From Nocardia arthritidis (GTDB lineage Bacteria > Actinomycetota > Actinomycetes > Mycobacteriales > Mycobacteriaceae), in NCBI RefSeq assembly GCF_011801145.1, contig NZ_CP046172.1, positions 5,270,001 through 5,334,000 of the forward strand: a stretch of DNA of 64,000 nucleotides. Reading direction: 5' to 3'. Under the pieces are notes generated by a model, which was not told the origin of the DNA, made no database searches, and was given only the letters and a program-made list of their open reading frames with translations. Of the stretch, positions 12,662 through 59,961 are shown one piece after another. Both the position numbers and the translations under genes were made by a program. Numbering within the stretch: the first letter of the stretch is position 1; each line of letters starts with the position of its first letter.

Positions 12662-13249
12662 ATGGCACGCGCCCGTTTGAACACCGACACATTGATCCAG
12701 GCGGCGGCGGAGATGGCCGACGAGGTCGGCTTCGACAACGTCACCGTGATGGCGCTGGCCCGCCGCTTCGGCGTCAAGGACGCGAGCCTCTATTCGCATC
12801 TCAAAAACGTGCGCGACCTGCGCGAACGCCTGGCCGGATCGGCACTGACCGAACTCGCCGACCGAGCCGCCGACGCATTGGCAGGCCGCTCCGGCAAGGA
12901 GGCGCTCATCGCCTTCGCGGGCGCCTACCGCGACTACGCCAAAAAACATCCGGGCCGCTACGCCGCCTGCCTCCTCGATATCGACGCCGATTCACCCGCC
13001 GCCGCGCCCGCCCGCAGGCACGCCGAACTCACCCGCGCCCTGCTGCGCGGCTACAAACTCGCCGAACCCGATCAGACCGATGCCGTCCGATTCGTCAGCG
13101 GCGCATTCCACGGCTACGTCGGCCTCGAGAAATCCGGCGGCTTCCGCCACCACCCCCGCGACACCGACGCCTCCTGGACCCGCGCCCTCGACGCCCTCGA
13201 CTCCGTCCTGCGCAACTGGCCGCCCGCCGACCCGAGCGCGCGCGAATAA
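12662..13249 (+). CDS. TetR/AcrR regulator with WHG-type C-terminal domain
   Basis: A 195-residue regulator. The helix-turn-helix lies in residues about 8-55: LIQAAAEMADEVGFDNVTVM, then LARRFGVKDASLYSHLKN. The C-terminal half carries YRDYAKKHPGRYAACLLD and FVSGAFHGYVGLEKSGGFRH, which identify the WHG subgroup (PF13305-like). It is read away from the amidohydrolase/SGNH pair and is likely their repressor, acting at the palindromes just upstream of its start. The ligand is unknown. Confidence 0.88.
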   Translation: MARARLNTDTLIQAAAEMADEVGFDNVTVMALARRFGVKDASLYSHLKNVRDLRERLAGSALTELADRAADALAGRSGKEALIAFAGAYRDYAKKHPGRYAACLLDIDADSPAAAPARRHAELTRALLRGYKLAEPDQTDAVRFVSGAFHGYVGLEKSGGFRHHPRDTDASWTRALDALDSVLRNWPPADPSARE

Positions 13250-13440: not shown

Positions 13441-13452
13441 CGGAGGAAGAAC

Positions 13453-15072
13453 ATGAACATCTCGACTCACCCTGCCCGCGAACGGGCACAGCTGAGCTGC
13501 TCGGGCATCCGTGTCGAACGCGGTGATCGCGTCGTGCTCGACGGCGTGGACATGACGGTGACGCCGCGCTCGCGGTGGGGCATCGTCGGCGAGAACGGCC
13601 GCGGCAAATCCACCCTTCTGCATGTCCTCGCCGGTGAACTGGCACCCGACGCGGGCGCCGTACACCGAGTCGGCTCGCTGAGCTTGGCCACCCAGGAAAT
13701 GCCCGCCGACGACGAACGCACCATCGGCGACGCCATCGACGAACAGCTCGCCCCGGCCCGGGCGGCCCTGCACCGCCTCGATGCGGCCACCGCCGCCCTC
13801 GCCACCGAACAGCCTTGCGCGGCAGACGAATACAGTGCGGCCCTCGACCTGGTGCAGCTCCTCGACGCCTGGGACGCCGACCGGCGGGTCGATATCGCGC
13901 TGGCGGGACTCGGTGCGATCACCGATCGAGAACGACCGCTCGCGACCTTGTCGGTCGGACAGCGGTATCGGGTCCGGCTGGCCGTAATGCTCGGCGGCAC
14001 AGCCGATTTCCTGCTGCTCGACGAACCGACCAACCATTTGGACCATGCCGCACTGGAATTCCTCACCACCCAACTGCGCGCCTTCCACGGCGGCGTCGTG
14101 GTGGTGAGCCACGACCGAGCGCTGCTGTCCGACGTGGCCGAGACGATCCTCGATCTGGATCCGACGCGGGACGGCGCACCGCGCGTATACGGCGGCGGCT
14201 ACTCGGGCTACCGCGAAGGTCGCCGCGCCGAACTCGAGCGCTGGGAACACGAGTACAAGCAGCAGCAGACCGAGCGCGCTCGGCTGGCCGACGATCTGTC
14301 GGCCGCGCAGAACCGCCTCGTCACCGGATGGCGGCCGGACAAGGGCACCGGAAAACATCAGCGGGCCACCCGCGCCGGCGCGTTGACCAGATCCGTCCAT
14401 CGCCGCCAGGACGCGCTCGACCGGCATGCGATCACGGCTCCCGTTCCGCCGCAACGCTTCGCCATGCCGGAACTCCCGTCGCGCTCGGGCGTGACGTTGA
14501 TTCGCGCCGACAAGGTGACCGTCGACGAGCGGTTGCGCCGCCCCGTCGATCTCGCCATCGATTCCGGTGACCGCCTGATGATCACCGGCGGCAACGGTGC
14601 GGGCAAGTCGACGCTGCTCGCGGTGCTCACCGGAACGCTCACGCCGACAACGGGTTCGGTGCACCGCGCCCGCAAGGGTCGCCTCCGGCTGCTGCGCCAG
14701 GAGTCCGAGCTGCCGCCGCGACGCCGCGCCCGAGACGTATACGCCACGCACACAGCGCAATTGGTGGCCGATGGGCTACTGCCGGAAGGCGAAGTGGTCC
14801 CCTTCTCCACCCTAGGTCTGCTCTCCTCTCGGGATGCGAACAAACCCATCGCCGACCTGTCGATGGGCCAGCGACGCCGCCTCGACTTGGCGCTGGCCCT
14901 GGCCGCACGCCCGCATGCGCTCCTACTCGACGAGCCGACCAACCACCTGTCCATCGCACTCGTCGACGAACTCACCGACGCGCTGCACGCCACCGCCGCC
15001 GCCATCGTCGTCGCCACCCATGATCGCCAATTCCAGCGCGATGTCGGCGGCTGGCCGCGCTTGAACCTCTAG
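13453..15072 (+). CDS. ABC-F ATPase, probable ribosome-protection antibiotic resistance protein
   Basis: A 539-residue tandem ABC ATPase with no membrane segments, which is the ABC-F architecture. Domain 1 has Walker A GENGRGKST (residues 46-54), signature LSVGQRYRVRL and Walker B LLLDEPTNHLD. Domain 2 has GGNGAGKST, LSMGQRRRLDL and LLLDEPTNHLS. The linker between them is charged. ABC-F proteins bind the ribosomal E site; resistance types displace macrolides, lincosamides, pleuromutilins or related drugs. The ATG at 13453 follows GGAGGAAGA. The upstream very short ORF and hairpin leader point to drug-induced expression, which favours a resistance role over an EttA-like housekeeping one. Confidence 0.88.
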   Translation: MNISTHPARERAQLSCSGIRVERGDRVVLDGVDMTVTPRSRWGIVGENGRGKSTLLHVLAGELAPDAGAVHRVGSLSLATQEMPADDERTIGDAIDEQLAPARAALHRLDAATAALATEQPCAADEYSAALDLVQLLDAWDADRRVDIALAGLGAITDRERPLATLSVGQRYRVRLAVMLGGTADFLLLDEPTNHLDHAALEFLTTQLRAFHGGVVVVSHDRALLSDVAETILDLDPTRDGAPRVYGGGYSGYREGRRAELERWEHEYKQQQTERARLADDLSAAQNRLVTGWRPDKGTGKHQRATRAGALTRSVHRRQDALDRHAITAPVPPQRFAMPELPSRSGVTLIRADKVTVDERLRRPVDLAIDSGDRLMITGGNGAGKSTLLAVLTGTLTPTTGSVHRARKGRLRLLRQESELPPRRRARDVYATHTAQLVADGLLPEGEVVPFSTLGLLSSRDANKPIADLSMGQRRRLDLALALAARPHALLLDEPTNHLSIALVDELTDALHATAAAIVVATHDRQFQRDVGGWPRLNL

Positions 15073-17087: not shown

Positions 17088-17780
17088 CTAGCGAAACGGC
17101 TTGCGGCACAACGTGTTATGCACCATCTCGGTGAGCGTCACGATGTCGAAGACGGGTAGGCCGATGCGACTTCGGATGGCGTGGGCGTACGGGACCAGAT
17201 CGGTGCATTCGATGACGAGTGCGCCCATATCCGGGTTGTGCGCGGCCAGCTCGGTCACCTCGTCGAGCACTTCGCGGCCGAGGCGTTCGGCATCGAGTTC
17301 GGTGCGGCGGCCTTCGAGGACGACCTCACGGAATTCGGGATGCTCCGACATGCCCGCGACGCGGACCGGCACGGATTCACCGCCGATCGCCGCCAGATGA
17401 CGGTGGGTGAGCGACTCCTTCCTGGCGACGAGCAGACCCACCGTGCGATCCGCGGCCAGCATGCGGTGCACCATCGGCAGCTGGATCAGGCTGGAGCTGA
17501 ACAGCGGAACACGCACGGCGTCGGCCAGTTGCGCCTGAAAGATGACGAGGAAGCCGCACGCGGCCGTAATCGCCGCGACGCCTTCGGATTCCAGTTTCCG
17601 CGCGGCGTCGACGAATGGGCGCAGCAGTGCCGGATCGGCCTCGGTCACCACTCGCCGCGGTGTCGCGCCCCGCACCACCTCGTACACGACCGGAAAGTCG
17701 AATGTCGCCGGATTCCGGATATGGCCCGGATTTTTGGTGAACGCGGTGTCGAGGCACAGCACACCGATCGCATCCGTCAT
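17088..17780 (-). CDS. Asp/Glu/hydantoin racemase family protein
   Basis: A 230-residue member of the aspartate/glutamate/hydantoin racemase superfamily. Both catalytic Cys positions are visible: AITAACGFLVIF in the first half and LVIECTDLVPYA in the second. The ATG at 17780 has a GAGG site six bases upstream. It is the last gene of the seven-gene operon, starting one base after the FAD dehydrogenase stop. Pairing of a cofactor-free racemase with a D-amino-acid-dehydrogenase-like enzyme suggests successive steps on one amino acid, in or around the capsid encoded upstream. That is inference. The amino acid is unknown. Confidence 0.85.
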   Translation of the reverse strand: MTDAIGVLCLDTAFTKNPGHIRNPATFDFPVVYEVVRGATPRRVVTEADPALLRPFVDAARKLESEGVAAITAACGFLVIFQAQLADAVRVPLFSSSLIQLPMVHRMLAADRTVGLLVARKESLTHRHLAAIGGESVPVRVAGMSEHPEFREVVLEGRRTELDAERLGREVLDEVTELAAHNPDMGALVIECTDLVPYAHAIRSRIGLPVFDIVTLTEMVHNTLCRKPFR

Positions 17781-17781
17781 A

Positions 17782-19083
17782 TCAACCTCGTTTCGCATGA
17801 CCGCCGCCGAAGCGGTTCGGCCGCAACGGAATCGGATCGGTGACCGGTTGCGCACCGGATAGCAGCTGCCCGACCAGTTCCCCGCCCGCGGGCGCCAGCC
17901 CCATGCCGATATGGCCGTGGCCCGCCGCGACGAGTAGATTGCCGAAATCACCGGCGCGCCCGATCAGCGGCAGGCTGTCCGGCGTGCACGGCCGAAATCC
18001 GCTCCAGGTCTCCAGGATTCGGGTTTCCTCCAGTGCGGGCAGATAGTCGCGGACAGTTCGCAGCATCGCCCGCACCCTGCGGTCGGCGGCGGCGCCGTTC
18101 ATCCCGGTGAGCTCGAGCCGTCCACCGACGCGCAGGCGCTCGCCCAGCGGCACCATCGCAATCCTGCCCTCACTCAACAGCACCGGACGACTGGGCGCGC
18201 TCGCCGGGCGCTCCATGGTGACGCTGTAACCCTTCACCGGCTGCAACAGCAGGCCGATACCGGCCATCCGGGCGCAGTCGGCCGACCACGCGCCCGCGGC
18301 GACAACCACGTCCGCGGGACGGAATTCGCCCCGATTCGTTCGCAGCAGCCGGACCCGCCGCCACTCGGTCTCGAACCCGGTCACCTCGGTGTGCTCACAG
18401 ATCTCGACGCCCAAATCCCGTAGCATCCGGCCGAATTCGGTGACGAACTCCGGTACGTGCAGATAGGCGCCCTCCGGGTTGTACAGGGCGCCATGGATGT
18501 CGAACCGCGTCTTCGGTTCGAGCTCGCCGAGTTCATCCGGGCCGAGTACGCGCAGCGGTATTCCGTTGTCCACCGCGCGGGGTACCGCCCGGCTCGCCTC
18601 GGCGAAACCGCGCGCGGATTTGAACGTCAGCACGATGCCCGGTGAATCCAGTTCGGCGGCAAAGTTTTCCGATGAACACAGGGCGTCGAGCAATTCGAGG
18701 CTGCGCCGCTTCATCCCGGCCAGCACCCGGAATCCGGCCGCCGCGGCCTCGGCCGAGCACGCCCGGCGGAAATGCCAGAGCCAGCGTAGTAATTCGGCAT
18801 CCGCGCGCGGTTCGATATACCAGGGCGCGTCCGGGCGCAGCATGCCGAGCGCGCGCAGCGACCGCATGCCCGGCTCGGCCAACGGCGCGGCGCCGTGGCT
18901 GCCGACGAATCCGGTATTCCCGTAGGAGCACGACTGCGGCCCGCCGAGCGCGCCGCGCTCCAGCACGGTCACCGACGCACCGCCGAGGCGCAGATAGTAG
19001 GCACAGAACAGACCGGCGACCCCGCCGCCGACGACCACCACATCCGGATCGTCGCGCACGGGAGCCGGGTCTCGGTTCACCAC
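17782..19083 (-). CDS. FAD-dependent D-amino-acid dehydrogenase-like oxidoreductase
   Basis: A 433-residue DAO-superfamily flavoenzyme like DadA. The dinucleotide fold is at residues about 14-42: VVVVGGGVAGLFCAYYLRLG, then VTVLERG. GYSVTMERPA and the C-terminal PDSLPLIGRAGDFGNLLVAA, followed by GHGHIGMGLAPAGG, match the FAD-binding C-terminal signature. Members oxidise amino or imino acids to imines/keto acids. The start is GTG at 19083, nine bases after the capsid gene stop. It has an N-terminal extension of about 13 residues and a Gly/Arg-rich C-terminal tail (RPNRFGGGHAKRG), both of which could be capsid-targeting segments. No targeting motif is known for this group. Confidence 0.87.
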   Translation of the reverse strand: MVNRDPAPVRDDPDVVVVGGGVAGLFCAYYLRLGGASVTVLERGALGGPQSCSYGNTGFVGSHGAAPLAEPGMRSLRALGMLRPDAPWYIEPRADAELLRWLWHFRRACSAEAAAAGFRVLAGMKRRSLELLDALCSSENFAAELDSPGIVLTFKSARGFAEASRAVPRAVDNGIPLRVLGPDELGELEPKTRFDIHGALYNPEGAYLHVPEFVTEFGRMLRDLGVEICEHTEVTGFETEWRRVRLLRTNRGEFRPADVVVAAGAWSADCARMAGIGLLLQPVKGYSVTMERPASAPSRPVLLSEGRIAMVPLGERLRVGGRLELTGMNGAAADRRVRAMLRTVRDYLPALEETRILETWSGFRPCTPDSLPLIGRAGDFGNLLVAAGHGHIGMGLAPAGGELVGQLLSGAQPVTDPIPLRPNRFGGGHAKRG

Positions 19084-19092
19084 GATTCCGGC

Positions 19093-19959
19093 CTACACGG
19101 TGACGACGAAGAAGTTCGTCGGCAGGTTGACCACCACCCGCTCGTAGATCTGGGCCATCAGCGCGATACCCGGCTCGGCGAAGGTGCCCTCGGGCGGTTC
19201 GGCGAAGCGGATGACCGAGCGCCCGGCGTCGAAAAGCTGTGCGCCGTGGCCGAAATCGCCGACGATCGCGGTCCCCGGCTCGACAAGGCGGGTGCGCACG
19301 ATGAACACCCCGTTCTGCTCGAGATCCTCCATCAGCCGACCGCTTCCCATGGCCAGGTAGTAGTCGACGGGGTTGATGATCAGGCCGTCGGCGGTGCCGC
19401 CCATCTGCTCTACCTCGTTGCAGGCGCGCAGGATCGTCGAGGCGAACGGCCCCGGCGCGGTCATCCGTTCGATACCGGGCATATTCAGCAGCCCGCCCTC
19501 GCCGCTGATGATGGTGTGATTCTCGGCAGTGCACAGCCGGACGATCAATCGATAGTTGATGAAGTTCTCGAAGGTTTCCGGATCCGTCCACAGCTCGGGC
19601 GGCACCCTGACCCACGCCGTGGTGGTGAGCAGTTCCGGGATCGGCGACTTGTGGAATCCGCTGGCCAGCTCGCGCCGCACCTCCGCGCCGGCGATCGGCG
19701 CGTCACCCGCGCTCTCGTGCCAGTAGAAGTGGCGTGGATCACGGGACAGGTCAATGGTTTTCAGCATATTGCGGGCCGGGTTGCGCGGTTTGCGCCGCGA
19801 GCTCGTGAGCGAATCGGTGATGGTCACGTCGTACTCGACGGCCGCGTCGAGCCCTTGTTCCGCACAGCATTCGGCGAATACCCGGCCCGGCGACCGCTCG
19901 TTCTTCCGGTCGGCGACCACCTGCGCCAGAGTCTGCTTGATACCCTCTGTTTTCAACAT
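19093..19959 (-). CDS. HK97-fold capsid-like protein: encapsulin, family 3-like
   Basis: A 288-residue protein with the sequence pattern of HK97-type major capsid proteins. It has an E-rich helix (residues about 125-150), then IISGEGGLLNMPGIERMTAP, a long helix, DGLIINPVDYYLAMG (191-205) and GTAIVGDFGHGAQLFD (229-244). FAEPGIALMAQIYERVVVNL leads to an aromatic C terminus. There is no N-terminal scaffold domain. The ATG at 19959 follows a strong AGGAGG. It lies in the middle of a metabolic operon with no portal, terminase, protease or tail gene anywhere in the window, so a resident phage is unlikely. The protein most resembles encapsulin shells of the natural-product class (family 3), which self-assemble and hold enzymes. 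Assembly, cargo and family placement need testing. Confidence 0.8.
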   Translation of the reverse strand: MLKTEGIKQTLAQVVADRKNERSPGRVFAECCAEQGLDAAVEYDVTITDSLTSSRRKPRNPARNMLKTIDLSRDPRHFYWHESAGDAPIAGAEVRRELASGFHKSPIPELLTTTAWVRVPPELWTDPETFENFINYRLIVRLCTAENHTIISGEGGLLNMPGIERMTAPGPFASTILRACNEVEQMGGTADGLIINPVDYYLAMGSGRLMEDLEQNGVFIVRTRLVEPGTAIVGDFGHGAQLFDAGRSVIRFAEPPEGTFAEPGIALMAQIYERVVVNLPTNFFVVTV

Positions 19960-19989
19960 CTTGCCTCCTGAGAAATCCGGCGCCGCTTG

Positions 19990-20793
19990 CTATTTCGCCG
20001 GCGCGTAGGACGAGCCGAGCACGCTCGCGCCGCCGTCGATCAGTTGCACCGTTCCGGTGATGTACGCGGCCCGTTCACTGGCCAAAAAGGCGGCGAGGGC
20101 GGCGATTTCGTCCGGCCGCGCGATCCGCCCCACCGCGGTGTGCGCGTCGAGCGCGGCCAATTCCGCATCGATCGCGCCGTCCGCGGATCGCTGTGCCAGG
20201 ACCCGTTCCAGCAACGGGGTGCGGGTGGAACTCGGCGCGAGCACGTTGACGGTCACGCCGTCGCGCCCGGCCGCAGCGGCGAGGGATTGGGCGAACCGTG
20301 TGATCGCCGCCCTGGTCACGCCGGACAGCGCCAGCCCGCCGATCGGTACCGCCGCCGTTTCCGATGCGACGAAAAGCACACGGCCCCAGCCCTTTTCCCG
20401 CAAATAGGGCAGTGCCGCCAGCGCCAGTTCGACGGCGGGCATCAGCACCTCGTCGACCGCCGCCCGGTAGGTCGCCGGGTCGAAGGCCACCGCGCTGCCG
20501 GTGGGCGGGGTGCCGCCGCTCACCGCGACGATATGCAGCCCGCCGAATTCGGCGGCCACCTCCTCGACCCAGCGCCGGGCCGCGACGCCATCGGTGATGT
20601 CGACGCTCGTGGCATGCACCCGGCCCAACGCCTTCTCCCGCACGACGCGCTCGGCCGCCGCCAGCCGGTCCGGATCGCGCGCGCCGATGGCGACGTGCGC
20701 GCCCTCGGCCGCCAACTCCCTGGCGATCGCCAGACCTATACCGCTCGAACCGCCGGCCACCAGCGCGACCTTGTTCGTCAGACCGAGATCCAC
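19990..20793 (-). CDS. SDR oxidoreductase with altered active site
   Basis: A 267-residue classical-length short-chain dehydrogenase starting at GTG two bases after the sulfotransferase stop. The cofactor motif is GGSSGIG (residues 14-20), and the Ser of the catalytic set is S144 in VASETA. The usual Tyr and Lys of YxxxK, expected 13 and 17 residues further on, are S157 and R161 (SGVTR). Some FabG-like SDRs share this S-x-x-x-R pattern and their chemistry is unclear. The C terminus, EIAALAAFLASERAAYITGT, is intact. It is the gene directly upstream of the capsid gene, 30 bases away, and is a candidate cargo or partner enzyme. Confidence 0.9.
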   Translation of the reverse strand: MDLGLTNKVALVAGGSSGIGLAIARELAAEGAHVAIGARDPDRLAAAERVVREKALGRVHATSVDITDGVAARRWVEEVAAEFGGLHIVAVSGGTPPTGSAVAFDPATYRAAVDEVLMPAVELALAALPYLREKGWGRVLFVASETAAVPIGGLALSGVTRAAITRFAQSLAAAAGRDGVTVNVLAPSSTRTPLLERVLAQRSADGAIDAELAALDAHTAVGRIARPDEIAALAAFLASERAAYITGTVQLIDGGASVLGSSYAPAK

Positions 20794-20795
20794 CG

Positions 20796-21722
20796 CTAGG
20801 CTCTTCCGTTGCGGTCGGTGTAGCCGTATCGCCGCAGCAGTGGCCAGGACAGCGTGGCCACCGTCGTCCGCGCGGATTTCGGCAGCGCGGTCCGCCAGGT
20901 ATCGTCCGTCGGCCGGATGACGGTGACGCCGGTGTTGAAGCGGTCCGGATTGCCGGTCACCGTGTGGTTCGCGCGCAGTTCGATCGTTCGATCGGTCAGC
21001 GGATTCGCCGACGGGTCGGTTTCGCACAGCCGCAACAGGTCGTCCACCGTCCCCGCCGGATCGGCGATGAAATCCTCGTACCGCAGGAACATCGACCGCT
21101 CCGGATGGCGGCGGGTGATCGCATGCGAGGCCAGATTGAATCCGCTCCAGTAGCCGGTGCTCTTGGCCGGTGACATGGTGTACACGTATTCCTTTGGCCT
21201 GCTCCATGATTGGGCGACGGCACGGGGATCGCGCACCAGATGGACGTAGTACGGGACGATGCCGTCGAGGTATCCGAGCAGCGCCGCCTCGCCCGGGATC
21301 TTCGTGGTGTCGACGATCACCCGCGATTCGCTGCGCTCCGCGATGGCCCGATAGACCCGCGTCATCAGGTCGGCATGCGCGCGGATTTCTTCGTTGTGCA
21401 GGCCGCGGCCGAGTACCTGCCAGGTGTGCCGGGTCCGGACATTGCCGAGCTGCCGCCGGATCACCACATCGGCATGGGCCTGCATGCTGAACCCGGCGGG
21501 CCTGCCGATCGGCAGGATGGTGGACCAGAACGGGCATTCAACCAATTTCCGCCCGCAGCCGCAACTTTCGTTCGCGCCGCGACCCGCCGCGTTCTTCCAG
21601 AGGAAATGCAGTTCGCCGACGTGGAAGAAGTCCGGGATCTCGTTGAGGATATTGCCCATGATGGTGCTGCCGTTGCGGCACCACCCGGTAATGCACAGAA
21701 CCTTGAGTGGTGCGTTCGTCAT
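20796..21722 (-). CDS. PAPS-dependent sulfotransferase
   Basis: A 308-residue sulfotransferase. The 5'-phosphosulfate loop is near the N terminus in CITGWCRNGSTIMGNIL, and the 3'-phosphate motif is in HLVRDPRAVAQSWSRP. A Cys cluster, SCGCGRKLVECPFW, follows the first loop. It would move sulfate from PAPS to a hydroxyl or amine of a small molecule, lipid or glycan. The gene overlaps the upstream MFS stop by ATGA and precedes the SDR by two bases, so it is firmly part of the capsid operon. Its acceptor is unknown, but the neighbours suggest an amino-acid- or amino-sugar-derived product. Confidence 0.88.
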   Translation of the reverse strand: MTNAPLKVLCITGWCRNGSTIMGNILNEIPDFFHVGELHFLWKNAAGRGANESCGCGRKLVECPFWSTILPIGRPAGFSMQAHADVVIRRQLGNVRTRHTWQVLGRGLHNEEIRAHADLMTRVYRAIAERSESRVIVDTTKIPGEAALLGYLDGIVPYYVHLVRDPRAVAQSWSRPKEYVYTMSPAKSTGYWSGFNLASHAITRRHPERSMFLRYEDFIADPAGTVDDLLRLCETDPSANPLTDRTIELRANHTVTGNPDRFNTGVTVIRPTDDTWRTALPKSARTTVATLSWPLLRRYGYTDRNGRA

Positions 21723-22882
21723 CTGCCGACTTCCTGTTCGAGCGATTGCCGGATCGTGCGGGCCAGCGCCGTTGCGAGCAGCGCGCAACCCGCGCCGACG
21801 ACGAAGACCGCCGGATAACCGAATCCGCTCGCGATCGCGCCGGTCACCGGACCCCACACGAACAGGCCCAGATCCCAGAACGAGGTGTAGGCGCCAAGGG
21901 CCGCACCCTGTTTCGACTTCTCCGTATTGTTCATGACGATCAGCGCGAGCGACGGATGCAGCAGCGAGAATCCGGCTCCCATGACGACCGCGCCGAGCAC
22001 CGCCACCGGAAGGTTCGGCGCCCAGGCGATGATCAGCAGTCCGGCGGCCTCGCCGACACCGGACCAGGACGCCACCCGCCGCGGCCCGAGCTGGTCCGGC
22101 AGCCGCCCGATGACCAACCGGGTGCCCGCGTACACCGCGCTGAAGATGCTCAAAACAACCGCGCCGGAACCTATTCCGCGCAGCTGTAGTTCGCGGATGA
22201 CGAAGGCGGCCAACCCGACGTAGCCCGCGGCCGCGAGGCAGAGTGCGACACCGGGCAATACCGCGGGCCGCACCAGCAACCCGCCGCCACCGCCGGACGA
22301 TTCGGCGCGTGCGGGCACCGGCACCACGCTTACGAGTACTAGACCGACCAAAGGCATTGTGGCACAAAAGCTCCACACCGCATCGATGCCGAAATGCCGC
22401 AGCGCGGCCCCGAGCGCGGTGCCCGCCGAGATACCACCCCACATGGCGACGCCGTACAACCCGATCAGCTGGCCGCGGCGTTCGTGCGGTGCGAGCGTGA
22501 CCGTCCACACGGCGCCCGCGGTGAAAAGCGCCGCCTCGCCGACGCCGACCAGCAGGCGCACCGCGATCAGCCCGATGAATCCCAGCGGCACAAAGTAGAG
22601 CAGTCCGCCCGCCGCGATGGCCATGGCGCCGGACCGCATCACGAAGCGATGCCCGTACCGGTCCGCGAGCCCGCCGAAAACCGGCCGGGTGAGCAGCGCG
22701 GTGAGCGCGGTCGCCGTCACCGCGAGCCCGACCGCGAGATCGCCCGCGCCGAACTGATCCCTGACATAACCGGGCAGCACCGGAATCGCCGCCGACAGAC
22801 CGAGATAGCCGCAGAACAATCCGCCGTACACCCCGGCGAGCGCCAGACGCGGGTACGCGCCGGTCCCGGAGGAGACCGTCAT
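21719..22882 (-). CDS. MFS transporter (probable product exporter)
   Basis: A 387-residue, 12-helix-pattern major facilitator. The loop 2-3 signature is VFGGLADRYGHRFVMRSG; another conserved stretch is ALFTAGAVWTVTLAPHERRG, in the drug/multi-drug exporter style. The central loop contains a Ser/Gly-rich spacer (ESSGGGGG). It is coupled by ATGA overlaps to the aminotransferase before it and the sulfotransferase after it, which makes export of the pathway product, or import of a precursor, the likely role. No signal peptide is present or expected. Confidence 0.87.
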   Translation of the reverse strand: MTVSSGTGAYPRLALAGVYGGLFCGYLGLSAAIPVLPGYVRDQFGAGDLAVGLAVTATALTALLTRPVFGGLADRYGHRFVMRSGAMAIAAGGLLYFVPLGFIGLIAVRLLVGVGEAALFTAGAVWTVTLAPHERRGQLIGLYGVAMWGGISAGTALGAALRHFGIDAVWSFCATMPLVGLVLVSVVPVPARAESSGGGGGLLVRPAVLPGVALCLAAAGYVGLAAFVIRELQLRGIGSGAVVLSIFSAVYAGTRLVIGRLPDQLGPRRVASWSGVGEAAGLLIIAWAPNLPVAVLGAVVMGAGFSLLHPSLALIVMNNTEKSKQGAALGAYTSFWDLGLFVWGPVTGAIASGFGYPAVFVVGAGCALLATALARTIRQSLEQEVGR

Positions 22883-24225
22883 CGTTGCCCGGCCCACGAG
22901 TTCGCTTCGGCGCCAAGGTCTTCCGGGTCCGGTAGCGCGGCGGCCACCTTGCCGACCGCGGCGACGAGATGATCGCAATCCGCCCGCGACAAGGTGGACG
23001 AGAGCGGAATATCAACGGCCCCTTGCAGATAGCGGGTCGTACTCGGCAGGAGTTCCTTGACCGCCGCGGTATCCGTCCCGCCGAACAGGAACCGCCAATT
23101 CCAGAACGCCCGGATATTGCGATCGGAATCCGAGCCGAGGTTGCGCGCCTCGATCCCCTCGTGGCACAGCGCTCGCGCGAACCACTCCGCGTGGCCGCCG
23201 GGGACCTGGAAGATGAACGCCTCGCCCAGATACGCGCCGGGCGCGACCGGGCGGCGGATCCGGATTCCGTCCAGATCGGCCAGCGCCGAGGCGACGTAGT
23301 CGTAGTTCTCCCGGAAGGCGGCGAGGCGGATCGGCAGCCGTCCCAGTTCGGAGCGCAGCAGGGCGGCCCGGATCTCATCCATCCGGAAGCTGTACAGCGG
23401 CAGCTCCAGATCGGTCACCAGCGGCGGCTCGCGGTCCGGGAAGTGCCGCCGCAACCGGCCCTCGTACGCGCCGGAAAGCACTGTGGCACGGGCGAAAAGG
23501 GTGCTGTCGTCGGTGATCAGGAACCCGCCCTCGCCGCTGTTGAGCGACTTGTCCGACTGGGTGCTGAACGCACCGGCCACACCGAAGGTCCCGAGTTTGC
23601 GGCCGTCGAGTTCCGCGCCGAGCGCGGGCACCGCGTCCTCGAAGACCGGCACACCCATCTCCTCGGCGAACCGCGTCAGCGCGGCCATATCCCCGGCGAA
23701 TCCGCGCATGTGCACCACCACGATCGCCCGCACCGCCGGTGTCCACCGGCGACGCAGATCGGCCACGTCGAGGTGCAGGTTCTCGTCGACGTCGACGAGG
23801 AACGGCTTACATCCGGCGAGCATGATGGAGCTCGGCGTCGCGGCGAAAGTGAAACCGGGACAGGCGATCAGGCTGCCCGGCTCGATTCCCGCCGCCATGA
23901 TCGCCAGCGCGAGGGCGGTGGTGCCGCTCGAGGTGGCCAGCGCGTGGCGGCAGCCGAAATAGCGGCACAGCTCCGCCTCGAACATGCCGCATTCGGTCTC
24001 GTCCGGCGGGCGATAGTCGTATCGGAAATAGAGGTGGCTGCGGATCGCACGCAGCGCCGCCGCCTCATCGTCGGGGTGGACGCACACCGCACCCCTGTCG
24101 TACGTCGGCCAGGCGGTCAGCCGAACCGGATTTCCGCCGTAGATAGCCAAAGGTGAACCGTGGGCCGACCGTGTGCCGGGAAGAACCGGAGCCGATGCCG
24201 AATGGTGACTCTCGTTGTCCGCCAT
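22879..24225 (-). CDS. DegT/DnrJ/EryC1-type PLP aminotransferase
   Basis: A 448-residue PLP enzyme that opens the capsid operon. The ATG at 24225 has AAGGA five bases upstream. The fold-type I pattern is clear: ATSSGTTALALAIMAAGI, CPGFTFAAT, FEDAVPALGAELDGRKLGTF. The PLP Lys is in STQSDKSLNSGEGGFLI, followed by RMDEIRAALLRSEL. This family aminates keto-sugars or cyclitols and also serves in other natural-product pathways. The first about 28 residues are Ser/His/Pro-rich and probably disordered, unlike most DegT proteins that start close to the fold. The substrate is unknown. Confidence 0.88.
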   Translation of the reverse strand: MADNESHHSASAPVLPGTRSAHGSPLAIYGGNPVRLTAWPTYDRGAVCVHPDDEAAALRAIRSHLYFRYDYRPPDETECGMFEAELCRYFGCRHALATSSGTTALALAIMAAGIEPGSLIACPGFTFAATPSSIMLAGCKPFLVDVDENLHLDVADLRRRWTPAVRAIVVVHMRGFAGDMAALTRFAEEMGVPVFEDAVPALGAELDGRKLGTFGVAGAFSTQSDKSLNSGEGGFLITDDSTLFARATVLSGAYEGRLRRHFPDREPPLVTDLELPLYSFRMDEIRAALLRSELGRLPIRLAAFRENYDYVASALADLDGIRIRRPVAPGAYLGEAFIFQVPGGHAEWFARALCHEGIEARNLGSDSDRNIRAFWNWRFLFGGTDTAAVKELLPSTTRYLQGAVDIPLSSTLSRADCDHLVAAVGKVAAALPDPEDLGAEANSWAGQR

Positions 24226-52325: not shown

Positions 52326-53504
52326 CTATCGAGTGGGTGCGGGTTGGGACAGCTCGTTTCCGGTCACGCCGGGCGGCGGGCCCGATCCGTTGTCGGGCAC
52401 GTCGGGGCGCGGGGCATTGGCCGAGCCGCGGATCTGCAGGGCCGGGTTGCTGGTGACGCAGTAGTTGTAGAGCCGGACCCGGGTGTCGGTGGTCTTCTCG
52501 GTGGGGACCACGGGGATGGTGTCGTATTCGCACCACGGTCGCGGCCACGGATCGACCAGCGTGTAGAACTGGCCGTCGTGTGCCGGGATGCCGAGCGCCT
52601 CCGATCCGGTGCGCAGCGCGGGGAACAGCGCGGCGATCGCGGGCGCGCGCAATTTCGCCGCCTTGGTGATCGCGACGAAGTTCGTCACCAGATCGGTGAT
52701 CGGATCCTGTGTGCGCGAAACGAATTCGTTCAGCGTGGCCAACTGTCCCGGCCCGGCGTCGATCAGGTGGCGCAGTTCCCGATCGGCCGCGGTCGTCTGC
52801 TCGAACAGCACGCCGCCCGCTCTGGTGAGCGTGGCCAGGTCGGGTTGCGCGTGCGAGGTGGTTTCGGCGATCACCTCGAGGTTCGCGATGAGGGCGCGGG
52901 TCTGCGGCAGCAGGCCGTCCAGCCCGGCCATCGCCCGGCTCATCCCGGATATCATGTCGCGCAACCGATCCGGGCCGCCGGCCAGCGCACGGTCGAGCTC
53001 GTCGATGATCGTGTCGAGCCGGTCCGGGTTCATCCCGCCGATGAAATCGCTCAGATTCGCCAGCACCGATTGCACCGGTACCGGCACGGTCGTACGCGCA
53101 CGCTCGACGACGGCGCCGTCGCTCAGATACGGCCCGGTTTCGGAGTCGGGGCGGAAGTCCAGATACTGTTCGCCGGCCGCGGACAGCCGCCCGACGGCGA
53201 CGGTTCCGCCGACGGGAATGCGGGCCGCCGCGTCGATTTCGGCGATCGCCGTCACACCGGCGCCGGAAATCCGGAGCTCACGCACCTTCCCCACCCGGAC
53301 GCCCCGGAACGTCACGTCGTTGCCCCGCGACAATCCGCCCGACGACGGCAGCTCCACCGTCACGGTGTAGCCGCGCGCCAACGGATTCCACCGCAGCACG
53401 CCGGCGGACAGGTAGGCCGTGCCGAGCACCAGCGCGACGATCAAACCGATATTCGCGACCGCTATCCGGTGGCGCACCAACCATTGCCACAGCGGCGGAT
53501 TCAC
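52326..53504 (-). CDS. mceF: MCE family protein, MceF position
   Basis: A 392-residue substrate-channel subunit of the Mce transporter. One N-terminal helix (IAVANIGLIVALVLGTAYLS) anchors it; the MCE domain follows with GGLSRGNDVTFRGVRVGKVR and GEQYLDFRPDSETGPYLSDG. A long helical region and a Pro-rich end (PRPDVPDNGSGPPPG) complete it. It starts at GTG 53504, overlapping the mceE stop by GTGA. Confidence 0.9.
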   Translation of the reverse strand: MNPPLWQWLVRHRIAVANIGLIVALVLGTAYLSAGVLRWNPLARGYTVTVELPSSGGLSRGNDVTFRGVRVGKVRELRISGAGVTAIAEIDAAARIPVGGTVAVGRLSAAGEQYLDFRPDSETGPYLSDGAVVERARTTVPVPVQSVLANLSDFIGGMNPDRLDTIIDELDRALAGGPDRLRDMISGMSRAMAGLDGLLPQTRALIANLEVIAETTSHAQPDLATLTRAGGVLFEQTTAADRELRHLIDAGPGQLATLNEFVSRTQDPITDLVTNFVAITKAAKLRAPAIAALFPALRTGSEALGIPAHDGQFYTLVDPWPRPWCEYDTIPVVPTEKTTDTRVRLYNYCVTSNPALQIRGSANAPRPDVPDNGSGPPPGVTGNELSQPAPTR

Positions 53505-54607
53505 CGCTCGCCCCCGGGCCGAGGCGGGCTGGTCAAGCGCCCGATGACCTTTTCGATCACCTGGGCCAGACTCCCGATGAATGCTGCGGCGTCACCGAAT
53601 TCGGGCCATCGGCTGCCGTTCGGATCCGTCAACGCGCCGACGCTGAGGTAGGAAACGGTCGCCGCGACGGCGAGCGTCGGACCACTCATGCTGGCCATCA
53701 CCGGCGGATAGATTTCGTGTAATCCTTCGAGGGTGCCCGCCAGATCGTCGCCCATTCGGGTGAAGCCCGACATCAGCCGCTGAATGCTCTCGAACAGGCT
53801 CACCGCCTGCGGCCCGGTGCTGTCGGCGAAATCCCCGAGCGCCGCCATGGTTTCCGAAACCTTCCGCAGCAGTGTGACGATGCTCTGCGTGTTCTCGCTG
53901 AGCAGCGCCAACAGTTGCGGGAACGAGTCGGCGGCCGCGCCGAGTTCGGCCTTGCGCCTGGACAATTCGCCGCTCAGCACGTTCAGCCCGGTCAGAGTGC
54001 TGTCGATATCGGCGGTTCGCTGGTTCAATGCCGCTATGGCATCGGTCATTTCGCCGATCAGGTGGGCCAGCTGCGGAGCCCGGCCCGCGAACATCGAGTT
54101 CAGTTCCGCCGCGATTTTCGCCGCCTGGTTGATGCCGCCCCCGTTGATCAGCATGGACACCGACATCATCAGCTGCTCCACCGATGCGGCCGCCGCGGTG
54201 TGCTGAAGATCCAGTGTGTCGCCGGGCCGCAGCGGCGGACCGCCCGCACCCTCCGGCGGCAGCGTCATCGCGACGAAGATATCGCCGAGCGGCGTCGCCT
54301 GGCGCAGCTCGGCCGTGGTTCCCTGGGGAAGTGAGATGTCCTCGCGGATAAGCATTTCCACATCGGCGACGAAGTTCGTCGTGGTGATGCGGGTGACGAC
54401 GCCGATATCGGTTCCGCCGATCCGGATGTGGGCGCGCTGCGGCAGATTCAGCGCATCGCGAAAGGCGGCGTGAATGGTGTATCCCGGCGCGCCGAGACCG
54501 GGTTCCGGCATCGGAACGTCCTCGACGGTTACCACGCATCCGCTCGCGCTCACCGCTACCGCGAGCACGGCGGCGACGATTCGAATTCGCTTGATCCGCA
54601 ACGTCAT
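53501..54607 (-). CDS. mceE: MCE family lipoprotein, MceE position
   Basis: A 368-residue Mce subunit with a lipoprotein signal: basic start MTLRIKRIRI, hydrophobic run, lipobox VSASGC. The MCE domain includes ALNLPQRAHIRIGGTDIGVV and LRQATPLGDIFVAMTLPPEG. The long C-terminal coiled region has repeated small-hydrophobic heptads. MceE is the usual lipoprotein of mce operons (LprK/LprN type). It is ATGA-coupled with mceD. Confidence 0.9.
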   Translation of the reverse strand: MTLRIKRIRIVAAVLAVAVSASGCVVTVEDVPMPEPGLGAPGYTIHAAFRDALNLPQRAHIRIGGTDIGVVTRITTTNFVADVEMLIREDISLPQGTTAELRQATPLGDIFVAMTLPPEGAGGPPLRPGDTLDLQHTAAAASVEQLMMSVSMLINGGGINQAAKIAAELNSMFAGRAPQLAHLIGEMTDAIAALNQRTADIDSTLTGLNVLSGELSRRKAELGAAADSFPQLLALLSENTQSIVTLLRKVSETMAALGDFADSTGPQAVSLFESIQRLMSGFTRMGDDLAGTLEGLHEIYPPVMASMSGPTLAVAATVSYLSVGALTDPNGSRWPEFGDAAAFIGSLAQVIEKVIGRLTSPPRPGGER

Positions 54608-55701
54608 TTGGTGATTCCCAGCAGTGCGGCGGTGAGCCCGAAGTCGGGGCCGAAATCCTGGATGCGGCCGGTGCGGCAGCCGTCGAGGCGCAGCTGGATA
54701 CGCTCGCAGAACAGCGAAAGCGCCTCGCTGTCCAGCACCGTCTTGTCGAGCAGGCCGTGTAATCGCAACGCCTGGTCCTCGCGGCTCACCGCATTGGACA
54801 GGTTCTGGAACAGCAGCGGGCCGACGTCGACGATTTCGGTGAGCCCGCGCGCGTTCGCCCGCATCTGCGCGGTGACCTCGGCGAACCGGTTCATGGCCCC
54901 GGCCAGCTGATCCCCATTCTGCCCGACGAGCGTCGCGGTGTTGGTGACGAATTGGTCCAGCTGGTCCAGCACCGCCTGCAGCCCGGGCGCCTGATCGCCC
55001 ATCAGCCGGACCAGTTCGGTGAGCCTGCCGCTGAAATCGCGGACGGTCTGGTCGTTTTGGGCGGTGATCTCGGTGACCTCGTTGAGTTTGACGATGGTGT
55101 CGCCGATCTGGTCCTTGTTCGCCAGGGTGACCTGGAATGCGGCGGAGAGCGCGTCGAGGGTCTGTTTCAGCTTGTCGCCGTTGCCGTTCAGCAGCGGGAA
55201 CAGCACCCGGCTCGCCATCGGCCCGGTACGGTCGTCGCCTTTGAGCGCCGCGCCGAGCTGATCGAAGTTCTGCAGTATCCGGTCCAGCTCCACCGGAGTC
55301 CTGGTGTGCGCCAGCGGGATATGCGCCCCGTCCGCGAGCACCGGCCCGTTACCCGGATAGGCGGGCGCGAGCTCGATGTGCCGATTGGTGATCAACTGCG
55401 GATTCACCAGCGCCGCAATGGCATCCGCTGGGATGCGGACGTCCTTGTCGATACTCATGGTCACCTGCACGTAACTGCCCTTGGCCTCGATCGTGTCGAC
55501 CCGCCCCACCGGGACGCCGAGCACGGCGACCTCGTTGCCCGCGTACAGCCCGGCGACGTTCTCGAAATCGGCGCTGATACGCAGATGTTCACCGAGATAC
55601 TGTCCGGGCAGTGCCGTCAGGCTCGCGGGCAGCAGTCCGCATCCGGCGGTGAGCAGCATGCTCGCGCACAGCGCCATCATCTTCATCGCGACGCGCGCCA
55701 T
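54604..55701 (-). CDS. mceD: MCE family protein, MceD position, with lipobox
   Basis: A 365-residue Mce subunit. It begins MARVAMKMMALCASMLLTAG with a Cys right after, so LLTAGC is a good lipobox, which is less usual for MceD. The MCE domain has VAGLYAGNEVAVLGVPVGRV and PQLITNRHIELAPAYPGNGP. Helical repeats follow, ending ERIQLRLDGCRTGRI and a short tail. It begins one base into the mceC stop (TGATG). Either MceD is lipidated here, or the lipoprotein order differs from mycobacterial operons. Confidence 0.88.
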   Translation of the reverse strand: MARVAMKMMALCASMLLTAGCGLLPASLTALPGQYLGEHLRISADFENVAGLYAGNEVAVLGVPVGRVDTIEAKGSYVQVTMSIDKDVRIPADAIAALVNPQLITNRHIELAPAYPGNGPVLADGAHIPLAHTRTPVELDRILQNFDQLGAALKGDDRTGPMASRVLFPLLNGNGDKLKQTLDALSAAFQVTLANKDQIGDTIVKLNEVTEITAQNDQTVRDFSGRLTELVRLMGDQAPGLQAVLDQLDQFVTNTATLVGQNGDQLAGAMNRFAEVTAQMRANARGLTEIVDVGPLLFQNLSNAVSREDQALRLHGLLDKTVLDSEALSLFCERIQLRLDGCRTGRIQDFGPDFGLTAALLGITK

Positions 55702-56714
55702 CAGCCGCACCCCTGTACCGCTCGGGCGAAACACAACCAGTTGTCCGGAAAGATCCACGGCGCGTATACATTTCCGTACGGACCGTCGCCGAGAACATTG
55801 TTGAACTGCCGCAGCGCCACCGGCATGATCTCGTAGAGCCGGTCGAGGTTGCGCCGGTTCTTCGTCAAACCCTCGGACATGGTGTTCAGGTCGTTGATCA
55901 GCGGGGCCAGCCGATCATTGTTCTCCAGGCCCATCTCCTGGAGCACCTTCGAGAGCGCCGCCACATTGTCCAGCAACTGTTTCAGCAGTTCCTGCCGTCG
56001 CTGCACCGCCGTCCCGATCGCGTCGCCGCGGGTGATCAGCAGCAATACGCTGTTCTGGTTGTCCGACACCAGCTGTGCGACCTGATCCATACCCTTCAGC
56101 AGGGTGTCCACCTCTTCGCGGCGATCGCTGACCACCTTCGCCAGCGCACCGATGCTGTCGAGCGCCTGCACGGCCAACTGCGGGGAATCGCCCATCTGCT
56201 GGTTGATCACGTCCAGCGCCTGCCGCAACTTCCCCGGGTCGATCCGCTCGATCCGCTCGAACGAATTCTTGTACTGCGGATCCTGAATGACCTTGCTGAG
56301 GTTGTACGGTACCGCCGTGTTCTCGATTCGAATACGGTTGCCCGGCAGGCCCTTTCCATTGCCGGGCACCAGATCGATGTGCAGCTTGCCCAATATGGTC
56401 GACATCTTGATGGCCGCGTGCGCGTCCGGCCCGAGCCGCAGATCGCGGCGGATCTTCAGCTCGGCCACCACCTTGTCGCCGTCGAGCCGGATCGAACGCA
56501 CCTGGCCCACTTCGATTCCCGATACGTCGACGGTCGCGCCGGGCCGTAATCCGGCCGCCTGCGCGAATTCCGCCTGGATCGTCCGGTCGCCGACCCGCAC
56601 CTGTTCGAGCACGCTCGAGCCGACCAGCAGCAGCGCGACCAGCGTCGCCGCGGTGATGCCGAGCCGCAGATATCGGTTGCCGAGAAAGCCCGGCGGCCTT
56701 CGCTTTACCGTCAT
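55701..56714 (-). CDS. mceC: MCE family protein, MceC position
   Basis: A 337-residue subunit with one N-terminal helix (LGITAATLVALLLVGSSVLE). The MCE domain contains AAGLRPGATVDVSGIEVGQV and IKMSTILGKLHIDLVPGNGK. The helical tail is followed by a conserved end with FNNVLGDGPYGNVYAPWIFP, then two Cys. ATGA overlap with mceB fixes the start at 56714. Confidence 0.9.
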   Translation of the reverse strand: MTVKRRPPGFLGNRYLRLGITAATLVALLLVGSSVLEQVRVGDRTIQAEFAQAAGLRPGATVDVSGIEVGQVRSIRLDGDKVVAELKIRRDLRLGPDAHAAIKMSTILGKLHIDLVPGNGKGLPGNRIRIENTAVPYNLSKVIQDPQYKNSFERIERIDPGKLRQALDVINQQMGDSPQLAVQALDSIGALAKVVSDRREEVDTLLKGMDQVAQLVSDNQNSVLLLITRGDAIGTAVQRRQELLKQLLDNVAALSKVLQEMGLENNDRLAPLINDLNTMSEGLTKNRRNLDRLYEIMPVALRQFNNVLGDGPYGNVYAPWIFPDNWLCFARAVQGCG

Positions 56715-57733
56715 CGGCACACCTCCGATTGCGAATCGCCGCCCACCTGGGAGAACAGCCCAGGCGGTAGCAGCACGCCCCACAGCGAGACGTCCAGGCG
56801 GCAGATGTAGGCATTCCCGTACGCGCCGTAGCTGGTGAAACGGGCGATGCCGTTGAGGATCGTCGGCAGCTCGACCGCGGCCCGATCCAGCGACGCGCCG
56901 TTGAGCAGCAGCAGCGCCACACCGGATGTCGCATCGCCCTGCGCCCGCGCCAGCCCCGGCTCGAGCTGGGTGATGAGGCGGGTGAGCGAATCGGTCGAAC
57001 CGGCCACCCGATCGACCGAACTCTTCAGCGATTCCCCTTGGCTGTAAAGCGCTTCCACCAACGCACGGGCCTGGGTGAGCAAGGTTTCGAACTCGCCGCT
57101 GCGGCGCGCGAGGCCGGAGATCACACCGCTGAGGTTGGTCAGCACCTCGCCGAGGATCTTGTCGCGCTGCCCGAAGGTGCCCGCGAGCTCGGCGGCCTGC
57201 GTCACCAGCGCGCCGAGCGAGACCTGATTGCCCTGCAATGCCTGAATCAGCGTCTCCGACAGCGAATTCACCTGATCCGGTCGCAGCACATCGAACAGCG
57301 GCTCGAATCCGGACAGCAGCGCCGACACGTCGAACGACGGCTCGGTGCGGGCGAGCGGGATCTCGCCGTCCGGCGGCAGCGGCGTCCCCGGATCGGCGCC
57401 CGGCAGCAGTGCGATATACCGTTGTCCGATCAAATTCTGGTATCGGACAACGGCTTTCGTTGTCGAGGTGAGATGCTGGCCGTCTTGGATGCGGAACCCG
57501 ACCCGCGCCTGGTAGCCGTCCCCGAAACCGATGGTGTCCACCCGGCCGACGCGCACACCGGCCATCCGCACATCGTCGCCGACCCGCAGCCCCAGCACAT
57601 CGGAGAACACCGCGGAATACGATCGGGTGCCACCGGCGACCGGTCGCTGCAGCGTCGACCAAATCGTATAGGTCAATACGACGGCCACGACCGCGAACAA
57701 GCCGAATCCCACCGTCGCCCTGGCCGATTTCAT
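56711..57733 (-). CDS. mceB: MCE family protein, MceB position
   Basis: A 340-residue subunit. MKSARATVGFGLFAVVAVVL is the membrane anchor; the MCE domain has FSDVLGLRVGDDVRMAGVRV and VRYQNLIGQRYIALLPG. A helical needle region follows, ending with SYGAYGNAYICRLDVSLWG. The start at 57733 overlaps the mceA stop (ATGA). Confidence 0.9.
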   Translation of the reverse strand: MKSARATVGFGLFAVVAVVLTYTIWSTLQRPVAGGTRSYSAVFSDVLGLRVGDDVRMAGVRVGRVDTIGFGDGYQARVGFRIQDGQHLTSTTKAVVRYQNLIGQRYIALLPGADPGTPLPPDGEIPLARTEPSFDVSALLSGFEPLFDVLRPDQVNSLSETLIQALQGNQVSLGALVTQAAELAGTFGQRDKILGEVLTNLSGVISGLARRSGEFETLLTQARALVEALYSQGESLKSSVDRVAGSTDSLTRLITQLEPGLARAQGDATSGVALLLLNGASLDRAAVELPTILNGIARFTSYGAYGNAYICRLDVSLWGVLLPPGLFSQVGGDSQSEVCR

Positions 57734-59091: not shown

Positions 59092-59095
59092 ACCG

Positions 59096-59959: not shown

Positions 59960-59961
59960 GC

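What the first reader, a model, noticed from the sequence alone, without database searches (positions are those of the whole stretch)
17088..24225. Encapsulin-like capsid protein embedded in a seven-gene biosynthetic operon
An HK97-fold shell protein (19093-19959) sits in a gap-free operon with a DegT aminotransferase, MFS exporter, sulfotransferase, SDR, FAD amino-acid dehydrogenase and Asp/Glu racemase. Seen directly: all seven genes read one way, with spacings of -4 to 30 bases. The capsid gene has its own strong AGGAGG, which fits a need for many copies. No phage structural or packaging gene is present. Known: encapsulins reuse the HK97 fold to house enzymes, and a 'natural product' class (family 3) has been described computationally near enzymes such as sulfotransferases and SDRs (from memory, not checked). 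Inference: this operon makes a sulfated, amino-acid-derived small molecule, with reactive imine, keto or peroxide chemistry confined in a shell and the product exported by the MFS protein.
Basis: partly seen in the sequence, partly recalled or inferred. Interest (0 to 1): 0.93.

Follow-up and report, generated by a model that had tools for sequence, protein, structure and literature searches.

The report
Encapsulin shell gene in sulfation operon
A Nocardia genome carries a virus-derived shell protein inside a small-molecule operon; it belongs to the known but experimentally untested family 3 encapsulins, and comparison with relatives suggests that such shells are tied to a sulfate-adding enzyme.

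The parts
22879..24225 (-). DegT/DnrJ/EryC1/StrS-type PLP aminotransferase (448 aa), first gene
   Evidence: PF01041 E 9.9e-58; Lys of the SDK..NSGEGG motif in 32 of 32 (taken from memory to be the PLP lysine); nearest solved relatives by sequence are mostly sugar and cyclitol aminotransferases
21719..22882 (-). MFS transporter (387 aa), presumed exporter
   Evidence: PF07690 E 5.7e-43 (on a frame with extra residues upstream); overlaps both neighbours by 4 bases; a related MFS follows the shell gene in 3 of 6 class 4 loci
20796..21722 (-). sulfotransferase (308 aa)
   Evidence: PF13469 E 1.6e-11 (on a frame with six extra residues); CRNGST, LVRDPRA and NHTVTGNPDR identical in 32 of 32 class 1 rows; one clade with sulfotransferases of two other encapsulin cluster types
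19990..20793 (-). SDR-fold protein (267 aa, GTG start) without the classical catalytic Tyr/Lys (Ser157, Arg161)
   Evidence: PF13561 E 3.3e-38 (on a frame ten residues shorter); alignment to sorbose reductase 3ai3; Ser and Arg in 37 of 37 proteins, window included
19093..19959 (-). family 3 encapsulin shell protein (288 aa, HK97 fold)
19964..19969 (-). AGGAGG ribosome-binding site, 4 bases before the shell ATG
   Evidence: sequence; AGGAGG, spacing 4
17782..19083 (-). FAD-dependent D-amino acid dehydrogenase/DAO-type oxidoreductase (433 aa, GTG start)
   Evidence: PF01266 E 1.3e-66; PRK00711 D-amino acid dehydrogenase 234.8 bits, below its cut-off of 383
17088..17780 (-). Asp/Glu racemase-superfamily protein (230 aa), last gene
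   Evidence: PF01177 E 2.2e-9 (on a frame with extra residues upstream); PRK07475 279.6 bits, cut-off 231; two Cys in 35 of 35

Best explanation
The 19093-19959 protein is a family 3 encapsulin, a phage-derived shell protein domesticated as a permanent part of a small-molecule operon. Most likely mechanism: the shell assembles and works with the sulfation step; it holds the sulfotransferase, or the enzyme that hands it its substrate, while other operon enzymes make an amino-acid-like alcohol that is sulfated and exported by the MFS protein. Shown: fold (predicted) and family, no packaging genes listed near it, purifying selection, conserved gene set, constant sulfotransferase neighbour in the loci sampled, shared ancestry of the sulfotransferases of three cluster types. 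Inferred: assembly, cargo identity, product. My odds: family identity 0.97; assembles as a shell 0.8; function coupled to sulfation 0.4; sulfotransferase itself is inside 0.25.
Against: No particle, cargo or product was found in print for this family in my searches. Neighbourhood does not prove encapsulation. In class 1 one or two genes lie between sulfotransferase and shell. No terminal extension is shared by the sulfotransferases of classes 1-3. The Mesorhizobium type in PMC8346489 (section 9) is described without naming a sulfotransferase, and I could not fetch Mesorhizobium or Myxococcus loci, so the rule may hold only in Actinomycetota. The 49 loci are not independent: 34 are class 1, most of them found by similarity to this shell, and one (L125) scores under the family cut-off and has a broken shell gene; independent classes are four. 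The sulfotransferase tree has long outgroup branches, and the program warns that such joins may be false. The window operon has no sulfate-activation genes of its own.
Confidence: 0.55

Rival explanations
1. Reaction-vessel model of the 2021 paper: the shell traps reactive aldehydes, ketones or imines made by redox enzymes (FAD dehydrogenase, SDR), and sulfation is just a frequent tailoring step. Not exclusive with the best explanation.
For: An FAD D-amino-acid-dehydrogenase-like gene follows the shell gene in class 1; the class 4 locus L120 has an AMP-binding/PP-binding/NAD_binding_4 protein that could release an aldehyde, an aldo-keto reductase and a DAO-like FAD protein (my reading). Proposed in PMC8346489 section 9.
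Against: Class 2 shows no DAO-type, SDR or reductive-release gene in the run of genes around the shell, although its unassigned F10 protein begins like a Rossmann dehydrogenase (my reading) and L066 has FAD-like and SDR-like genes 5-8 kb away; the SDR lacks Tyr and Lys. A sulfotransferase is the gene common to all four classes sampled.
Confidence: 0.3
2. The SDR-fold protein is the cargo: its conserved C-terminal tail (LPHLTG...DTY at the end) is a targeting peptide, lost in Nocardia together with the methyltransferase.
For: In 17 methyltransferase-bearing loci the last 14 residues of the SDR are 66% identical, against 12-37% for the last 14 residues of the other five enzymes and the transporter (the shell's own C-terminus is 87%); the tail scores about 67-70 in the model while 16 of 25 ten-residue blocks before it score 90 or more. 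Family 1 targeting peptides are usually C-terminal (PMC10960027 passage).
Against: Nocardia keeps a well-conserved shell while its SDR tail is only 23% identical; the class 3 SDRs printed end without a tail; the tail may instead dock the methyltransferase, although L021 keeps a similar tail without one beside it.
Confidence: 0.2
3. Remnant or satellite of a prophage: a phage capsid gene that landed in an operon by chance.
For: HK97 fold; phage major capsid proteins are distant relatives, about 30% identity over residues 79-288. Two PHROG tail-named matches in the window were not placed.
Against: No packaging genes listed nearby; same operon in Nocardia, Streptosporangiaceae, Micromonosporaceae and a MAG labelled Chloroflexi; dN/dS 0.139; shells are one side of a 100/99 branch against 9 phage-type capsids.
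Confidence: 0.02
4. The shell protein is kept for a non-compartment role, such as a scaffold that docks operon enzymes without forming closed particles.
For: No report of a family 3 particle surfaced in my literature searches or in the passages read.
Against: A whole HK97 fold is predicted with good confidence from residue 21 on, except 48-55, and residues conserved over four classes run from 59 to 283.
Confidence: 0.13

Closest known systems
Family 3 (natural product) encapsulins, PMC8346489, NCBIfam NF041188
   Same: Shell family, actinobacterial host, biosynthetic operon with a sulfotransferase and SDR pair, no packaging genes listed nearby
   Different: Whether this exact gene set is one of the six published operon types could not be checked: figure and supplement were not readable. 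Here no NRPS, PKS or amino-group carrier gene in the operon, and no methyltransferase
Class 1 relatives in Micromonospora, Nonomuraea, Streptosporangium and MAGs (L007-L025)
   Same: Same seven genes, in the same order where the locus is complete (exceptions L011, L014, L017)
   Different: 18 of 19 carry a methyltransferase between SDR and shell (L021 lacks it), and their SDR has a conserved tail; both missing in Nocardia
Second family 3 cluster of the same genome (L065), with L066, L118 and L119
   Same: Shell plus sulfotransferase of the same clade plus an MFS gene
   Different: Transaldolase-like protein and sulfate-activation genes; shells only 24-27% identical to the window's
Family 1 encapsulin EncA (8vjo) and HK97 gp5 (8fqk)
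   Same: HK97 fold
   Different: Identity 10% and 19% in those alignments; no Linocin_M18 match; no phage context

Membership tests
Family 3 encapsulin | Capsid sequence of the family 3 type | tested here: met
   NF041188.2 equivalog 319.4 bits, cut-off 180
Family 3 encapsulin | HK97 fold | tested here: met
Family 3 encapsulin | Embedded in a biosynthetic gene cluster, no phage genes around | tested here: met
   reserves: capped family lists, and two PHROG tail-named matches not placed
Family 3 encapsulin | Common partners sulfotransferase and SDR | tested here: met
Family 3 encapsulin | Pfam PF05065 annotation (paper: some members) | tested here: not met
   No Pfam match at E 0.001; not a requirement, since most of the 120 relatives listed carry none either
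Family 3 encapsulin | Self-assembly into an icosahedral shell | not testable with these tools
   Needs expression and electron microscopy
Family 3 encapsulin | Dedicated cargo loading | tested here: inconclusive
   No terminal motif seen in common; conserved SDR tail only outside Nocardia in class 1
Phage major capsid protein | Portal, protease, terminase or tail genes beside it | tested here: not met
   None among the operon and its near neighbours nor among families listed for the window (two tail-named matches not placed); contrast phage Gack
Phage major capsid protein | Full-length match to phage capsids | tested here: not met
   0 of 312 matching phage records cover 80% or more
Family 1 encapsulin | PF04454 Linocin_M18 | tested here: not met
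   No Pfam family matched
Classical SDR oxidoreductase (for 19990-20793) | Catalytic Ser-Tyr-Lys (recalled from the SDR literature) | tested here: not met
   Ser144 kept, Tyr and Lys replaced by Ser157 and Arg161 in 37 of 37

The most novel reading that the evidence does not exclude
Family 3 shells are sulfation compartments. The shell and a dedicated sulfotransferase are one inherited module that has been plugged into at least four different pathways, with the sulfotransferase once exchanged for another type (class 4) and sulfate-activation enzymes present in two classes; this Nocardia runs two such systems side by side. The module may keep PAPS, its by-product, or a sulfated intermediate apart from the cytoplasm.
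Probability: 0.27. Interest if true: 0.78.

Novelty: new member of a known kind. Interest (0 to 1): 0.5.

Why it matters
Family 3 encapsulins have been predicted since 2021 but, according to passages in papers of 2024 and 2025, still lack experimental validation, and their cargo is unknown. The comparison narrows the search from any tailoring enzyme to a sulfotransferase-linked step, shows that the SDR does not have a classical reductase active site, offers a candidate targeting peptide in relatives, and points to one genome with two different systems where cargo choice can be tested against an internal control. A virus-derived shell tied to sulfation would be a new kind of bacterial compartment chemistry.

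Tried and rejected
Rejected: prophage capsid. Rejected: strong ribosome-binding site as proof of many copies. Looked for a methyltransferase elsewhere in the genome: 32 weak matches, best 31% identity and 91.5 bits, no close copy. Promoter and terminator scan: 0 promoter-like sites (shuffles 0.7) and 6 terminator-like (shuffles 4.0, sd 2.0), nothing clear. PADLOC: one weak desaturase-model match of the FAD protein (21 bits), nothing else for the four proteins given. Plasmids: 9 of 72,556 records match, none covering 80%. Viral contigs: 6 distant matches, not followed. Racemase: no solved relative at E 0.01. Sulfotransferase: only marginal solved relatives (4gox E 0.0035, 22ga E 0.089). No shared targeting motif was seen in DegT, FAD, racemase, sulfotransferase or MFS termini. 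Literature: 2 papers hold encapsulin, family 3 and biosynthetic gene cluster, 1 holds natural product encapsulin, none from 2022 on holds the phrase family 3 encapsulin, 169 from 2022 on hold two of encapsulin, family 3, sulfotransferase, 25 listed; chloromyxamide is in 9 papers, seen as a listing only. Only an open-licence library was searched.

Dropped rows. Sulfotransferase tree: 24 of the 40 encapsulin-linked rows in hand were given (16 of 32 class 1, all 8 of classes 2 and 3), and 14 of 18 outgroup rows; four (L131a, L133, L139, L135) were dropped as badly called; L142 was fetched and not used. Shell tree: 29 of 45 shell rows and 9 phage-type capsids that score under the family cut-off. 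L017, L023, L081, L125 and L002-L006 (which repeat genomes fetched again as L068, L073, L069, L071, L075) were left out of trees. Gene tables come from my own simple gene callers.
Full report
1. What is there. The seven genes lie on the minus strand: DegT aminotransferase 24225-22879, MFS transporter 22882-21719, sulfotransferase 21722-20796, SDR-fold protein 20793-19990, shell protein 19959-19093, FAD oxidoreductase 19083-17782, racemase-family protein 17780-17088. Spacings run from -4 to 30 bases. The genome is a 10.0 Mb single contig. It is taken to be a Nocardia: the closest named proteins are from Nocardia, and contigs of genomes labelled same genus have the lengths of named Nocardia contigs (130468, 9122433, 129130, 349940, 1110130).

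3. Conservation of the operon (class 1). The scan of genome contigs gave 24 loci: Nocardia, Nonomuraea, Streptosporangium, Micromonospora, MAGs of Streptosporangiaceae, Micromonosporaceae and Thermomonosporaceae, and a MAG labelled Chloroflexi. 19 of 24 hold all seven genes in this order on one strand; of the other five, L008, L017 and L024 are cut by contig ends (L017 also lacks FAD), L011 lacks a recognised MFS gene, L014 has DegT on the other strand downstream. Within Nocardia, 25 of 150 genomes have some match and 16 a shell over the family cut-off; 15 of the 17 shells over the cut-off, window included, are class 1. In a sample of 396 genomes of the phylum, 12 had a match and 2 were over the cut-off, the window's own included. 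In 295 genomes of another genus, taken to be Streptomyces from protein names, 30 had a match and 11 were over it. Among the 22 best conserved neighbour families listed, the one found beyond a single lineage in most loci is a methyltransferase (my reading of its sequence) of about 280 aa between SDR and shell: 18 of 19 non-Nocardia loci and G352, but 0 of 15 Nocardia loci. The window's genome has no close copy elsewhere. The shell is the most constrained of the seven proteins (dN/dS 0.139).

4. A second system in the same genome. G000:C1:6690779-6691591 is another family 3 shell, 307.9 bits. Its cluster (L065) runs MFS, transaldolase-like protein, a protein without a match over a Pfam cut-off, shell, sulfotransferase, a PAPS_reduct-domain protein (CysD by position) and an EF-Tu-like/APS-kinase fusion (CysN-CysC-like). 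Shell and sulfotransferase of the two clusters are related (29% over part of the shell, 38% for the sulfotransferase). The genome has three Sulfotransfer_3 genes and two of them stand beside the two shells; a rough chance estimate is 6e-6.

5. Four cluster types, one constant neighbour. Loci fetched fall into class 1 (window type); class 2 (L065, L066, L118, L119); class 3 with a LysX-like ATP-grasp, transketolase-type and amino acid kinase/peptidase proteins (L114-L117; Pfam on L116; ArgC-like and carrier-protein names are my reading); class 4 with AMP-binding multidomain proteins, an aldo-keto reductase and a Sulfotransfer_5 protein (L120-L125; Pfam on L120). A sulfotransferase gene lies on the same strand within 2.6 kb of the shell gene in 47 of 48 loci, 48 of 49 with the window; L017, the exception, begins at a contig end. 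In classes 2, 3 and 4 it is the neighbouring gene. In class 4 it is not of the PF13469 family and one search did not find it; it rests and blast. These loci are not independent; the count that matters is four classes of four. The PF13469 search over 28 genomes gave 1 to 10 matches per genome, and a chance of about 0.0025 per genome for one to lie within 4 kb.

6. Trees. Sulfotransferases of classes 1, 2 and 3 are one side of a branch (96/88.8) against 14 others from these genomes, with classes 2 and 3 together (100/99) (the printout warns of long outgroup branches). Shells are one side against 9 phage-type capsids (100/99), with classes 2 and 3 together (100/98) and classes 1 and 4 together (97/97). 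The shared part of the two trees agrees, as expected if shell and sulfotransferase travelled together; class 4 would then have exchanged its sulfotransferase for another type. The 15 sulfotransferases aligned share 73 invariant columns, among them RTRHT, CGCG and NHTVTGNPDR.

7. The SDR. Aligned with solved SDRs (3ai3, 2z1n), the catalytic Ser is present but Tyr is Ser157 and Lys is Arg161, in 37 of 37 proteins of classes 1 and 3. 2z1n shows the same letters there. So the usual reading, that an SDR makes the hydroxyl for sulfation, is not supported by its active site. In 17 methyltransferase-bearing loci its last 14 residues are 66% identical, against 12-37% for the C-termini of the other five enzymes and the transporter (the shell's is 87%); in Nocardia 23%. 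L021 has no methyltransferase yet keeps a similar tail. The tail scores about 67-70 in the model. I read it as a linear motif, for the shell or for the methyltransferase.

8. Mechanism. The racemase-family protein (two Cys in 35 of 35) and the D-amino-acid-dehydrogenase-like FAD protein would process an amino acid; DegT (Lys in 32 of 32) would set an amino group; the sulfotransferase would sulfate a hydroxyl; the MFS protein would export. No peptide-forming gene was recognised in the operon, so a small sulfated amino-acid-type product is the inference. The shell most likely works with the sulfation step. All of this paragraph is inference from families.

9. Known or new. The 2021 paper (PMC8346489; abstract and section 9 read, other passages by search) defined family 3, named sulfotransferases and SDRs as common genes, and proposed trapping of reactive aldehydes or ketones. 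PMC10960027 and PMC12140327 (one passage each) call family 3 unvalidated. So the window holds a new member of a known kind. In the passages read I found no statement that a sulfotransferase accompanies every class, that shell and sulfotransferase trees agree, or that the SDR lacks its catalytic pair; the paper's figures and supplement were not readable here.

Noticed in passing
L065 (own genome C1:6681500-6701400), 14127-5617 minus strand: Second family 3 encapsulin cluster in the same genome, with transaldolase-like protein, sulfotransferase and sulfate-activation genes (PAPS_reduct protein and CysN-CysC-like fusion).
   Followed up: yes
L081 9437-10312 and L125 9515-10350: Shell genes with broken reading frames in one Nocardia genome (G043) and one genome of the other genus (G679); no SDR was recognised in the L081 operon. 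Some lineages may be losing the system.
   Followed up: no
L005/L071 and L079, FAD gene: FAD gene is split into two overlapping frames while the rest of the operon looks intact; sequencing error or decay not told apart.
   Followed up: no
L017: MAG locus in which the racemase gene follows the shell gene directly, without the FAD gene.
   Followed up: no
G129:C313:258-926: Sulfotransferase scoring like the class 1 ones near the edge of a contig, in a genome whose one detected shell is class 2; it may be a cut class 1 operon.
   Followed up: no
window 52326-60825: Eight minus-strand genes that look like an mce-type lipid uptake operon: Pfam counts MlaD and Mce4_CUP1 in 6 of 51 and MlaE in 2 of 51 window proteins; the placing here is inferred from gene layout.
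   Followed up: no
window 13450-15072: Protein with two ABC_tran stretches, ABC-F-like from memory, beside a TetR regulator at 12662-13249.
   Followed up: no
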